Shown: positions 8,770-14,350 of the stretch, piece by piece
Layout: the number at the start of each line of letters is the position of its first letter
Position numbering within the stretch: position 1 is the first letter of the stretch
DNA from: Deltaproteobacteria bacterium
GTDB lineage: Bacteria > Myxococcota_A > UBA9160 > UBA4427
NCBI GenBank assembly: GCA_019310975.1
Contig: JAFDDH010000009.1
Coordinates: 1-42,040, forward strand
Length of the DNA: 42,040 nt
Direction of reading: 5' to 3'
The notes under the pieces: generated by a model
What the model saw: the letters and a program-made list of their open reading frames with translations, nothing else
Databases searched by the model: none
What the model was told of the DNA's origin: nothing
Made by a program: the position numbers and the translations under genes

Positions 8770-9528
8770 TCACCGCGGCGGCAAGTCTCCACCGACAACG
8801 GAGCCAGCGATGATCATCTCGAGCACGCGCTCGCGGCTGAGTGCCTCGCGGGGACCGTGGCCCACCAGACGGCCGTTCTTGAGCACGGCGATGCGATCTG
8901 AGAGGTCGAAGACGTCGTGCAGATCGTGGCTCACCAAGAGGATCGCGATCCCCTCGCCCTTGAGGCGCTCGATCTGTTCGGCCACCTGCCCCGTCTCCTG
9001 CGGACCGAGCGCCGCTGTGGGCTCGTCCATGATCAGTACGCGCGCCTCGAAGAGAAGGGCGCGCGCGATGGCCACGGATTGGCGCTGCCCACCGGAGAGC
9101 TGTCCGACGGGCCGGTGGAGATCGCTCAGCGCTGGGTTGAGGCGCTCGAGCACGTCGCGCGTGGCACGCTCCATGGCGGCCTCGTCGAGACGACCGAAGC
9201 GCGTCGTGCGCTCGCGCCCGAGGAATACGTTGGCGGGCACGGGTAGGTTGTCGGCCAGGGCCAGATCCTGGTAGATGGTCTCGATTCCGAGACGGCGTGC
9301 ATCGCGCGGGGTCCGGATCGAAACCGGTTGATCGTCGATTCGAATCTCGCCACGATCGCAGGGATCCGCGCCTGAGAGCATCTTCACCAGCGTCGATTTG
9401 CCGGCGCCGTTGTGGCCGAGCAGCCCGAGCACCTCACCCGCCGTGAGCTCGAGGTTCACTGCGTCCACGGCGACGACACCGCCGAAGGCCTTGGAAACAC
9501 CACACAGAGCCACCCTTGCGGCCGTCAC
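8770..9528 (-). CDS. xylG: Sugar ABC transporter ATP-binding protein (XylG-like, single nucleotide-binding domain)
   Basis: Walker [10 protein letters not shown], signature LSGGQRQ, Walker B VLIMDEP; GTG start at 9528 overlapping the permease stop (GTGA). Confidence 0.9.
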
Positions 9529-10742
9529 AGGGCATCTCCTCGGCGAGTCCAAACCGTATCGAGCCATACTGCCAGCACCAGCACCGCACCGATGCCCACC
9601 TGTCGAACCGCGCTCGAGATACCGAGCAGCACCATGCCATTCTCGAGGCTCTGCATCACCACCGCCCCGAGCACGGCGCCCGCGACGCTGCCGACACCCC
9701 CTGCGAGGCTGGTCCCGCCGATCACGGCCGCGGCGATCACCGCCAGCTCCGAGAGTGTCCCCATCGAATTCGTGCCGGCACCCAGTCGCGCACTGGTGAG
9801 CACACCCGCGATGCCCGCGAGCAGACCCATTGCGGTGAAGACCACCAGCGTGACCCGCCGCAGATCGATGCCCGCGCGTGCGGCCGCCGTCGGGCTGCCG
9901 CCCATCGCATAGACGTGTCGGCCGAAGCGCGTGGCGCGCGAGACCACGTGCATCGACGACCCGACGGCAATCAGCACCAGCACGGGAATCGGAAGGCCTC
10001 GCCCGACATCGCTGCGCGGCAGGGTGTGGGCGTTCATGACGGCCACGAACGCGAGTACACCCAGCACGGGCAGCCCCACCCGAATCGCCTCGGCCCAGAG
10101 CGGCGGAACCGTGACACCGTGGCGCCTGCGTTCGGCGCGCGTGCGCAATGTCAGCAGGGCGATCACGATGATCGCGACGCCGGCCAGCGCCCAGCTCGGC
10201 CCCACGCCGATGGAGCCCTCGATACCGCCGCCCAGGCGCTCGAATCCCGGGTCCAGGGGAGCCACTGTGCGGCCGTCGGTGAGCAGATAAGCGCTGCCGC
10301 GAAAGATCATCAGCCCACCGAGTGTAACCACGAAGGCGGGCACGCCGCGGTAGGCGATCCACCAGCCCTGTGCGGCACCGATCAGCCCGCCGCATGCGAG
10401 GGCAATCAGCGACGCAGAGGGCCAGCTGAGGCGGCTTCCAGCGAGCAGCCCATCGACCTGCAGAAGGGCAGCCAGCATGCCCGCGAAGCCGAGCAGCGAT
10501 CCCACCGAGAGATCGATGTGGCGGCTCACGATCACCAGCACCATCCCGCAGGCCATGACTCCGACGACGCTGCTCTGCACGGCGAGGTTGTAGAGATTGC
10601 GGGGCGTGAGAAAGACACCGTCGCTGGCGCGATTGAATGCGAGCGCGATCAACGCCAGAGCGCTCAGCATGCCCAGCAACCGGACGTCGATCTCGATGCG
10701 GCGCAGAACGCGCCCCACGAGCGAAGGCGTGGCGCTACTCAC
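9525..10742 (-). CDS. xylH: Sugar ABC transporter permease (XylH-like)
   Basis: 405 aa multi-TM protein with [21 protein letters not shown], characteristic of BPD_transp_2/XylH permeases; ATGA overlap with xylF. Confidence 0.93.
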
Positions 10743-11809
10743 CTTGCGTCCGCGCGACAGGCCGGCGGCGGATCTTCACTCACAGCTCGGCAGACCGTCT
10801 CGCGTGACACCCAGCCGGCATCGATCACCACTTCGAGGTTCTCCCGCGTGATCGGAACGGGCCGCAGCAGGATCGCGTCCATGCCGAGCCCGCGCGGGCC
10901 GTCTCGGTAGATCGTCGCGGCATCGATCTCGCCGGCCGGACGACCGCGCGCCAGCTCCAATGCCACATGCGCCGCGATCTTGCCGAGTGCCCGAGCATCC
11001 TTCCAGACACTCACCGTCTGCAGTCCGCGAGCCACCCGATTGAGCGCGGCATGGTCGCCGTCCTGTCCGGATACCGGCACCCCCTGCAGACCCTGTGCGG
11101 AGAGCGCGGCCACGACAGCGCCCGCCATCCCGTCATTCGAGCAGACCACCGCATCGACGCGATCGTCGTTGGCTGTCAGGATCTGCTCCATTACGCGCTG
11201 TGCGACCTCGGGCAGCCAGCCATCCACGTACTGCTCGCCCACCACTTCGATCCGACCCGCGTCGATGGACGGACGCAACACCTCCAACTGTCCCGCATGC
11301 ACGAAGTCGGCATTCGGATCCTGGGCCGAACCCTTGATGAATACGTAGCGGCCGTTCGGGCGCACCGCCTGCAGCGAGCGCGCCTGCAGCCGCCCGACCT
11401 CGACGTTGTCGAATGAGATGTAGAAGACACCGGGCGCCTCTACGAGCCGATCGTACGCAATCACCGGGATTCGCTCGGCACGAGCCAGCGCAAGCGCCGG
11501 GTGGATGGCATCCGCGTCCTGCGCAAGCACGACGAGCACATCAGCACCGCGCGCGATCAATCCCTCGATGTCGGCGATCTGCTTTTCGCTCGAGCTCTGT
11601 GCGTCACTGGAGAGATAACGAGCCCCCGCTGCATCGAGGGCGTCGCGGATGGCTGCCTCGTCGGTCTTCCAGCGCTCCTCCTGGAAGTTCGACCAGCTCA
11701 CGCCCACCACGATTCGGCCGTCCGTGCCGGACGCCTGGCCCACGCACGGCAGGAGCAGCAGCAGAATGCACACGCTCGTGAGCAGACGGCCAAGGGGGAA
11801 GAGGCGCAT
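10739..11809 (-). CDS. xylF: D-xylose-type periplasmic substrate-binding protein
   Basis: Signal peptide then [39 protein letters not shown]...[10 protein letters not shown]...[14 protein letters not shown], typical XylF; start reassigned to ATG at 11809. Confidence 0.93.
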
Positions 11810-12072
11810 GCCCGAGAGGGAACCACGGGGCCGTGGAGGTGTCGAGACTGGCACGCGAATGCGTTGCCTCGGAAACCAGCTTCGTGCCATCGGGGTCGGG
11901 TCGACTCGGCGGCCCCCGGTGGCTATACCACGCAGTCGAGGCGCCACGATGGTGTGACAGCACCGGTTGCAGAGCCGGGATCGGACGTGACTTGGAGCGG
12001 CGAGAATCCCCCTTCCTCAAGAGCCTCAGAAACCGACCCGAGCGCGAGCCCGATTGGATCATCCGTCCGAGC

Positions 12073-13287
12073 ATGCCACCGCATCAGAAGTGGGGAAGAA
12101 GGCTGGGCATCCCACTCCTCGTGCTGGCGGTGCTCTGGGGCACGGCCGAGATCTCGCTGCGCTTGGTCACGCAGTTGGATGGCAATGGCAACGAATACTT
12201 CGGCGACACCCGGCTCAAGCCCTATCACCTACCGGTGGCGAGCATGACCATCGGCGCGATCGAGGCCCGCCAGGACGACAGCTATCTCATGTCGGATCCG
12301 GATCTCGGCTGGTCGATCCGACCGAACGCTCGTAGCAAGGACGGCCTCGCCCTTTCTGGCCACCTCGGCAATCGCACCGAAGATCCGGATGCTCTTGTCG
12401 CATCTTCGGCGCAACGCGGACGGCTACGCCTCGCCGTCTTTGGCGACGACTTCACGCACGGCAGAGAAGTCACTTACGCGGAGACCTGGCCCGCCGTCAT
12501 GGGGCAGGCCCTCGAGGAGACGGGACTTTCGGCGGAGGTCCTGAACTTCGCCGTTCCGGGCTATGGCGTCGACCAGGCGCTGCTGCGCTGGCGCAAGCAC
12601 GGCCGGTCGCTTCACTCCGATGTGGTGCTGCTCGGCTTCCAACCCGACAACACTCTCAACAACCTCTCGCTGATCCGCGAGATTCTATTTCCTGGCCACG
12701 GCTATCCCTACTCGAAGCCGCGCTTCGTTCTGGCCGGGGATGACCTGCGCCTGGTCAACTCGCCGGCCGACGGCCCCGACGAACTCGTGAAGCACCTGAT
12801 CGACTTCGAGCGCTGGAAGTGGGCTCGCTACGAGTTCTACTACGACCCGGCCGACTACCGATCGACGATGCTGCGCCGGAGCCGCTTCCTCAGCTTCATC
12901 GAGGCAAAGGCCACGCTCCAACGCGACATCCGAAGCATCGACATGTACTCGCCGAGCACCATCGGCGGCGCGCTCACGATCGCAATCATCGATACCTTCG
13001 CCGAGGAGGTCCAAGCCACGGGTGCCGAGTTCGTGGTCGTCGTACTCCCCAATTTGGGCAGCTTCGTCCATCCCGACGTGATCGGAGGACTGGCAGCGCT
13101 CCTGGTCGATCTCGACCTACGACATTCCGTCGTCGACGCAAAGAGCGCGGTGGACTCGCTCGGCGGACTCGGCGCACTCCGTGAGATCTACGGACCCAGC
13201 GGCCACTACACACCACGCACCCACGGCGCAGTCGGCGAGCTCGTCGCCTCCCGCCTACAAGAACAACACCCGCCCCCCACCCCCTAA
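12073..13287 (+). CDS. SGNH/GDSL-hydrolase-like protein with atypical catalytic motifs, membrane-anchored or secreted
   Basis: N-terminal hydrophobic segment; block I-like LAVFGDDFTHG; C-terminal SGHYTPRTHGAVGELVASRL resembling SGNH block V; start at ATG 12073. Confidence 0.72.
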   Translation: MPPHQKWGRRLGIPLLVLAVLWGTAEISLRLVTQLDGNGNEYFGDTRLKPYHLPVASMTIGAIEARQDDSYLMSDPDLGWSIRPNARSKDGLALSGHLGNRTEDPDALVASSAQRGRLRLAVFGDDFTHGREVTYAETWPAVMGQALEETGLSAEVLNFAVPGYGVDQALLRWRKHGRSLHSDVVLLGFQPDNTLNNLSLIREILFPGHGYPYSKPRFVLAGDDLRLVNSPADGPDELVKHLIDFERWKWARYEFYYDPADYRSTMLRRSRFLSFIEAKATLQRDIRSIDMYSPSTIGGALTIAIIDTFAEEVQATGAEFVVVVLPNLGSFVHPDVIGGLAALLVDLDLRHSVVDAKSAVDSLGGLGALREIYGPSGHYTPRTHGAVGELVASRLQEQHPPPTP

Positions 13288-13373
13288 CGGGACCCTGACC
13301 TGCCGCCTACCCAACCACACCAGAGTTGGCAAAGCCGCAGGGAGCGGAACAGAATCTACCTCGCGACGACCGT

Positions 13374-13516
13374 GGCCGGGGGGATGGACGCCTGGCACGA
13401 AATCAAGCGCAGTAGAACCGTCCCCAACAAGGCCCCGCACACCCAACGGCCACCCACGCCAAACCAGCGGTGCCCCCCACACGAGCCATTCGTGCCAGGC
13501 GTCCATCCCCCCGGCC
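13374..13516. repeat. Perfect 28-nt inverted repeat (arms 13374-13401 and 13489-13516) flanking an 87-nt spacer
   Basis: Left arm ggccggggggatggacgcctggcacgaa; right arm ttcgtgccaggcgtccatccccccggcc is its exact reverse complement; lies between convergent genes. Confidence 0.93.
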
Positions 13517-13579
13517 CTGGCAACCCACCAACCTTACTCCGCCAGCCCCCACCACCAATCAACCAGCGTCAGAGCCAGC

Positions 13580-14326
13580 TCAGCCGCGTCTCTTCTGCTT
13601 GCGCTGCTTGCCCCGAAAGCCCTTCCGCATGCCCGGTGGCATCTGCGCCATGGAGGCGGGCGGTCGCTCCAGCTTCAGGCTGTACCACTGCATACCGAAG
13701 CGCTTCATGTTCAGCTTGCGATTGTTCTGAAGGCGCAGAAGGTTGTCCTTGGTGGCTTCGTTGCTCTTCTCCACCTTGAGACAGCGCTGCAGCTGCTCGA
13801 TGGCCTTGTCGCGATTGCCCCGCTTCTCGAGCATCCAGGCGTAGACGTTATAGGGGAGCATCTGCTTCTTGTTGGCCTTGATGCAGACGTCCATCGTATC
13901 CCACGCCGTGTCGTAGCTCTTGCGCCGGTAGTGGATGGCGGCGAGGGCGAGCTGCGCGTCCGGGACGCGCAGGCCGGCCCTCTCGAGATACTCGAGGGCG
14001 CGGTCCTCCTTGTCCATCGCATGGGCGAGCACTCCCATCTGCGCGTAGATCTGCCCGGTGAGCATCACCTGCCAGCGGCCCCAGGAGAGCAGCTCCTCGA
14101 GGCTCTGAAGAGCCAGAGGCTGGGCGCCCGCCTGAAGCTGCTTCTGAGCATGCAAGAACTTCGGCTCGATGCGGCGTGCCACAATGCGCGAGAGCACGAC
14201 GAAGCAGGTGATCGCGATCAGCACAGCGAGAATGATGCCCATCGCCCACGTCTTCCAGAAGCCGAGCAGCGTGTAGACCACACCGACCAAGATGCCCAGC
14301 GCGATGGAGATCAGGATGTTGTACAT
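13580..14326 (-). CDS. TPR-repeat membrane protein (hypothetical)
   Basis: Two N-terminal TM segments, then TPR-like helices (ALEYLERAGLRVPDAQLALAAIHYRRKSYDTAWDTMDVCIKANK), basic tail; start at 14326. Confidence 0.7.
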   Translation of the reverse strand: MYNILISIALGILVGVVYTLLGFWKTWAMGIILAVLIAITCFVVLSRIVARRIEPKFLHAQKQLQAGAQPLALQSLEELLSWGRWQVMLTGQIYAQMGVLAHAMDKEDRALEYLERAGLRVPDAQLALAAIHYRRKSYDTAWDTMDVCIKANKKQMLPYNVYAWMLEKRGNRDKAIEQLQRCLKVEKSNEATKDNLLRLQNNRKLNMKRFGMQWYSLKLERPPASMAQMPPGMRKGFRGKQRKQKRRG

Positions 14327-14350
14327 GGGGACCGACCCTAGCAATCGCGG

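What the first reader, a model, noticed from the sequence alone, without database searches (positions are those of the whole stretch)
13374..13516. Perfect 28-nt inverted repeat with C-rich spacer between convergent genes
The arms ggccggggggatggacgcctggcacgaa / ttcgtgccaggcgtccatccccccggcc match 28/28 with an 87-nt spacer. They sit in a ~290-bp non-coding gap (13288-13579) whose + strand is visibly C-rich and G-poor, unlike its surroundings. The arms are much longer than a typical terminator stem, and there is no transposase. This layout would fit a REPIN/MITE-like dispersed element, a bidirectional processing/terminator structure, or a structured RNA. I did not see a second copy in this window.
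Basis: partly seen in the sequence, partly recalled or inferred. Interest (0 to 1): 0.6.

Follow-up and report, generated by a model that had tools for sequence, protein, structure and literature searches.

The report
Dispersed hairpins with an invariant core
The hairpin is one copy of a previously unlisted family of about 8-25 hairpins per genome, found across one bacterial order, sitting just past the ends of genes, whose stems mutate almost freely yet stay paired around a fixed core, which suggests that an unknown protein reads the folded single strand.

Summary
In detail: 28/28 arms at 13374-13401/13489-13516, 87-nt spacer, far above chance. It is not unique. It belongs to a dispersed family: about 21 copies in the host genome, and multi-copy in most of the 44 (of 379) genomes of the phylum that have it, all 44 in the window's own order.

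Anatomy on the + strand: a 28-33 bp outer stem of nearly free sequence; an invariant asymmetric internal loop (GAARTMAAGCGCAG / CGAGCCAT); a short covarying inner stem; a free terminal loop (5 to about 100 nt).

Stem positions change on both sides while staying paired (383 two-sided cells; 0/500 shuffles). Residual mismatches are G.T/G.A (110) rather than A.C/C.T (16), so the + strand is the one that folds. Its 3' side sits a median 36 nt past the stop codon of a neighbouring gene, antisense to it. Close pairs are (-,+). Several positions are shared between families, so copies are old and partly inherited.

Y1/RAYT transposase is absent from the host and 13 other carriers of 25; Rfam has no match; GTAG and attC boxes are not conserved. 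I read it as a strand-specific folded site, working like REP or attC but a member of neither. Whether DNA or RNA folds, and what binds it, is unknown.

The parts
13374..13401 (+). 5' arm of the outer stem (28 nt)
   Evidence: pairs 28/28 with 13489-13516; covaries across the family
13402..13412 (+). 5' half of the invariant core, ATCAAGCGCAG (family RTMAAGCGCAG, following the GAA that closes the 5' arm)
   Evidence: AGCGCAG in 119 and AGCGGAG in 11 of 130 family copies
13413..13481 (+). terminal loop (C-rich here), opened by a first inner pair T13413-A13481 that covaries in the family
   Evidence: inner pair C-G 28, U-A 5, G-C 3, A-U 1; loop length 5 to about 100 nt elsewhere
13482..13488 (+). 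3' half of the invariant core, CGAGCCA
   Evidence: CGAGCC in 128 of 130 family copies
13489..13516 (+). 3' arm of the outer stem (28 nt)
13580..14344 (-). gene ending on the 3' side of the element (TPR protein), the antisense neighbour that the family rule predicts; stop 63 nt away
11833..13287 (+). gene ending on the 5' side (SGNH/GDSL-like hydrolase; true start not determined)

Best explanation
The element is one copy of a new, order-wide family of dispersed hairpins that work as a folded single strand. SHOWN: the + strand is the strand whose fold is conserved; an invariant asymmetric internal loop is held between an outer stem of nearly free sequence and a short inner stem; copies sit just after stop codons, on the strand complementary to the mRNA of that gene; some positions are shared between families. 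INFERRED: a protein encoded by these bacteria recognises the folded + strand by the invariant internal loop and contacts the 28-33 bp stem mainly by shape. I think it most likely acts on single-stranded DNA (bottom strand of the gene, exposed in replication or transcription), as REP transposases and integron integrases do, and that the copies are a mostly old, slowly decaying set of such sites, occasionally used or misused in recombination. INFERRED: the stems stay perfect because one arm is copied onto the other (template switching at the hairpin) together with selection against unpaired forms.
For: Family and covariation: 15 copies of the host genome, 97.6% of cells paired, 65 two-sided changes; 38 copies of 18 genomes, 383 two-sided cells, covariation score 0.749 against 0.164 in shuffles and at most 0.138 when slid. 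Strand: over 130 distinct copies, outer 20 bp, G.T 62 vs A.C 12 (p 3e-9) and G.A 48 vs C.T 4 (p 1e-10); the same sign where only the - strand should be transcribed by neighbours (24 vs 3). Placement: convergent gaps 40 of 81 with an element against 15 of 125 without; a gene ends on the 3' side in 75 of 94, median 36 nt. Orientation: 26 close pairs, all (-,+), one exception at a contig end. Old positions: PP2C - element(s) - sigma factor in three families and other cases. Fast symmetric stem change between orthologous copies: 45 two-sided against 23 one-sided differences, one pair 10 and 0. Strand-specific ssDNA hairpins read by mismatches or extrahelical bases are known for REP (PMC8266576) and attC (PMC8946536).
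Against: No recombinase or nuclease was found next to the copies; flanking genes are diverse. No near-identical recent copies, no target-site duplication and no insertion caught in the act; the one readable difference between relatives is a deletion. A G.T pair is also a G.U pair, so the strand signal does not separate ssDNA from RNA. Low counts per genome would also fit a small set of host RNA or DNA sites.
Confidence: 0.45

Rival explanations
1. A dispersed structured RNA: the + strand is transcribed as read-through of the opposite gene or as an antisense RNA, and folds into a protein-binding hairpin at gene boundaries that stops or processes transcripts before they run antisense into the neighbouring gene.
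For: G.U-type tolerance on one strand only; strong covariation; convergent gene ends preferred; the (-,+) pairs place each sense hairpin just before the opposite gene; positions conserved across families; one promoter-like match just 5' of the window copy.
Against: In 27 tandem (-,-) and 9 divergent cases no neighbour's read-through would make the + strand, yet the signal persists. G.U is only about 2.4% of outer-stem pairs. No terminator-like site, no Rfam match. Only 8-25 copies per genome, so not a general terminator.
Confidence: 0.3
2. A relict non-autonomous mobile element (MITE- or REP-like) that spread early in the order by a transposase now lost or unrecognised, and is now only inherited and deleted.
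For: Multi-copy and dispersed; copies of one genome resemble each other more than copies of other genomes (loop 0.68 vs 0.56); a hairpin lost with arm stubs left in one species.
Against: The core is invariant while stems and loops change, which implies current use, although detection by the core favours intact copies; arms are not a conserved terminal sequence; no target duplication seen; Y1 transposase absent in 14 of 25 carriers.
Confidence: 0.15
3. An attC-like cassette site: genes followed by a hairpin are inserted and excised between hairpins by a site-specific recombinase.
For: Folded bottom strand after a gene stop and a variable terminal loop, as in attC. In G048 an IPP-transferase gene lies between two direct hairpins, in G060 the same site has one hairpin and no gene, and an 87% identical gene lies elsewhere without hairpins. 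In the host, a 430-bp stretch holding a hairpin pair is repeated on both sides of two LssY_C genes.
Against: R boxes facing in the arms in only 4 of 130; no array; neighbours are mostly core genes; the one excision-like case fits plain homologous recombination between similar repeats. An integron integrase was not searched for.
Confidence: 0.09
4. A chance palindrome or local inverted repeat kept by template switching without function.
For: Template switching can make and mend perfect stems (PMC8794818).
Against: Invariant core and strand-biased mismatches in about 130 copies of more than 20 genomes.
Confidence: 0.01

Closest known systems
REP/REPIN elements and TnpA_REP (RAYT)
   Same: Dispersed intergenic hairpins, inverted pairs, recognised (for REP) as folded ssDNA on one strand
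   Different: Here the stem is 28-33 bp and almost free in sequence, the invariant part is an internal loop, GTAG is not conserved, and no Y1 transposase is present in the host or in 13 other carriers of 25
Integron attC sites
   Same: Imperfect palindromes with variable arms and a variable terminal structure, placed after gene ends, with the bottom strand as the folded one
   Different: No conserved R boxes, core sequence unrelated, no arrays, mostly fixed positions next to core genes
MITEs and similar bacterial palindromic repeats (ERIC, Correia and the like; recalled, not tested)
   Same: Small dispersed inverted-repeat elements without a gene
   Different: Those keep a common terminal repeat; here each copy has its own arms and the common part is internal
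Structured RNA families of Rfam
   Same: Covarying stems around conserved unpaired nucleotides, wobble tolerated on one strand
   Different: No Rfam family matches; the stem is unusually long and wobble pairs are scarce; the folded strand is antisense to the gene it follows

Membership tests
REP/REPIN (RAYT-associated) | Y1 (HUH) transposase TnpA_REP in the genome | tested here: not met
   PF01797: none in the host (draft genome 90.6% complete), absent in 14 of 25 carriers, host included
REP/REPIN (RAYT-associated) | conserved GTAG tetranucleotide 5' of the hairpin | tested here: not met
   No conserved GTAG beside the stem in the aligned copies; GCAGTAG after the core in only 13 of 130 copies
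REP/REPIN (RAYT-associated) | strand-specific folded single strand | tested here: met
   mismatch asymmetry 110 vs 16; binding itself not testable here
Integron attC | R boxes RYYYAAC / GTTRRRY at the stem | tested here: not met
   4 of 130 copies carry them facing in the arms, by a simple pattern search
Integron attC | folded strand is the bottom strand of the preceding gene | tested here: met
   75 of 94 copies, median 36 nt from the stop, with the strand signal
Integron attC | integron integrase IntI and attI | not tested
MITE | conserved terminal inverted repeats shared by copies | tested here: not met
   arms differ freely between copies
MITE | target-site duplication and empty sites | tested here: inconclusive
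   one hairpin absent in two relatives; one of them keeps arm stubs, so it is a deletion; no duplication seen
Known structured RNA (Rfam 15) | match to a covariance model | tested here: not met
Intrinsic terminator | G+C stem followed by a T run | tested here: not met
   no site found in 13150-13700

The most novel reading that the evidence does not exclude
An order-wide system in which a host-encoded protein recognises chromosomal single-stranded DNA hairpins by an invariant internal loop, with stems whose sequence is free and is renewed by arm-to-arm copying, placed on the bottom strand just after stop codons and able to mobilise or exchange the genes between two copies: a cassette-like system unrelated to integrons.
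Probability: 0.12. Interest if true: 0.9.

Novelty: new variant of a known kind. Interest (0 to 1): 0.68.

Why it matters
A family with an invariant core and stems that change almost freely while staying paired separates what a hairpin-reading factor needs from what it does not. The orthologous copies are a natural experiment on how perfect DNA or RNA stems are kept, since double changes outnumber single ones between close relatives. If the factor is a DNA recombinase it would be another class of strand-specific hairpin systems beside REP and attC; if it is an RNA it would be a new, abundant 3'-end structure in a little-studied order.

Tried and rejected
RAYT search in the host and 25 carriers: no association. 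Rfam at gathering and at lenient threshold: only chance microRNA-like hairpin matches. Recurrent neighbour gene as an autonomous partner: none; neighbours are diverse core genes. A gene between wide pairs (G322/G060, 1.1 kb): a multi-copy gene without Pfam match, not a recombinase. Viral contigs: 32 pattern matches, none with a hairpin, so chance. Eight named MAGs that carry the nearest relatives of the window's RND protein: no copies. Very long arms in G048 at a contig start look like an assembly fold-back and were not used as evidence. My first reading, that the near absence of G.U meant a purely double-stranded DNA palindrome, was dropped when the larger set showed the strand asymmetry. Literature searches found no description of this family; the library is open-access only.

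Full report
OBSERVATION. The inverted repeat is exactly as described: 13374-13401 and 13489-13516, 28/28, spacer 87 nt. No other perfect repeat of the window comes near it; the longest perfect arm in 30 shuffles was 16 bp. It lies between convergent genes ending at 13287 and 13580. The + strand of the gap is C-rich and T-poor.

IT IS A FAMILY. The 292-bp gap finds further dispersed hits in the same genome at 70-87% identity. A pattern with only the shared internal letters, AAGCGCAGTAG(50-80)CGAGCCA, gives 10 hits against 0 for the reversed control. A covariance model of 15 copies finds about 21 real copies in the host, some with a loop of only a few bases. In 60 relatives it finds copies in 20 more genomes. 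A second model from 38 copies of 18 genomes rings in 44 of 379 genomes of the phylum, every one of them in the window's order and in several families of it, and in none of eight named MAGs. The nearest named relatives of a window protein are mostly MAGs labelled Deltaproteobacteria, Myxococcota, Proteobacteria or Acidobacteria, so the host is probably an uncultured deltaproteobacterial or myxococcotal lineage (inference).

ANATOMY. Reading 5' to 3' on the + strand: an outer stem of 28-33 bp; the 5' core GAARTMAAGCGCAG (its GAA closes the stem); an inner stem of 1-6 bp; a terminal loop of 5 to about 100 nt; the inner stem again; the 3' core CGAGCCAT; the outer stem. AGCGCAG (or AGCGGAG) is present in all 130 distinct copies and CGAGCC in 128, but these copies were collected with the core as anchor, so the figure is partly by construction; the covariance-model searches, which do not demand it letter for letter, give the same picture. 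Stem sequence is nearly free: 26 of 28 outer pairs show changes on both sides, most with all four Watson-Crick pair types; 383 two-sided cells, covariation 0.749 against 0.164 in shuffles and 0.10-0.14 when slid by 1-3 columns. The first inner pair covaries too (C-G 28, U-A 5, G-C 3, A-U 1).

WHICH STRAND. In the outer 20 bp of 130 copies, departures from Watson-Crick pairing are G.T 62, A.C 12, G.A 48, C.T 4. G.T and G.A are tolerated in a folded strand; on the complementary strand the same cells would be A.C and C.T. So the fold of the + strand is what is kept. The bias has the same sign where both flanking genes run on the - strand (24 against 3), where no neighbour's read-through would transcribe the + strand. 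DNA and RNA cannot be told apart by this.

WHERE IT SITS. Gaps with an element are convergent in 40 of 81, against 15 of 125 other gaps in the same loci (genes called by a simple script). Oriented to the + strand, a gene ends on the 3' side in 75 of 94 cases, at a median of 36 nt (quartiles 25 and 51). The folding strand is thus the strand complementary to the mRNA of that gene. Where two copies lie close together they are (-,+), 26 of 27 by my count; the exception is at a contig end. Neighbour genes are diverse and mostly core metabolism or information genes.

HOW IT EVOLVES. Some positions are old: the gap between a PP2C phosphatase and a sigma factor carries elements in genomes of three families, and other gaps are shared between families. 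Orthologous copies in three species of one genus change their stems mostly by double changes, 45 against 23 single ones over the pairwise comparisons, and one pair differs at 10 of 28 positions with both stems perfect, although the flanking DNA is about 87% identical. Template switching between arms is a known way to do this (PMC8794818); replacement of a whole copy by another is not excluded. One copy present in G048 is gone in G060, and in G322 only arm stubs remain, so it was deleted. In G048 an IPP-transferase gene lies between two hairpins in the same orientation, whereas in G060 the same place has one hairpin and no such gene, and a gene 87% identical lies elsewhere without hairpins. In the host a 430-bp stretch with a hairpin pair is repeated on both sides of two LssY_C genes. 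These two cases suggest recombination at the hairpins but fit ordinary homologous recombination as well.

MECHANISM. Shown: a strand-specific hairpin with an invariant asymmetric core and a stem kept only for pairing. Inferred: a trans-acting factor reads the core of the folded strand. I favour single-stranded DNA over RNA, narrowly, because the folding strand is antisense to the anchoring gene and the signal does not depend on + strand transcription by neighbours. The factor is not known.

KNOWN KINDS. It works like REP (PMC8266576) and attC (PMC8946536), both strand-specific hairpins. It is neither by the tests made: no Y1 transposase in the host or in 13 other carriers of 25, GTAG not conserved, R boxes not conserved. 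It is not in Rfam, has no terminator-like tail and was not seen in viral contigs. I found no paper on it in the open library.

Noticed in passing
L247:19-448 and L247:3015-3443 (host contig C264): A 430-bp stretch with a (-,+) hairpin pair is repeated directly (88% identical) on both sides of two LssY_C-domain genes.
   Followed up: partly
L244:377-1811 (G048 contig C84) versus L245 (G060) and L243:5074-5991: An IPP-transferase (MiaA-like) gene lies between two direct hairpins in one species and at an unrelated place without hairpins in its relative.
   Followed up: partly
L156:1-250 (G048 contig C187): Very long palindromic arms at a contig start and a (+,+) pair, probably an assembly fold-back at the hairpin.
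   Followed up: no
window 8770-11947, - strand: Genes for a sugar-type ABC transporter (binding protein, permease, ATP-binding protein) upstream of the finding, judged from the ORF translations only.
   Followed up: no
window 13326-13355, + strand: A single sigma-70-like promoter match (TTGGCA-18-CAGAAT) just 5' of the hairpin, above the shuffled expectation; could drive a + strand RNA.
   Followed up: no
G032 and G055: Element-bearing genomes with many Y1-transposase genes (12 and 31 hits) beside others with none; no association with the hairpins was seen.
   Followed up: partly
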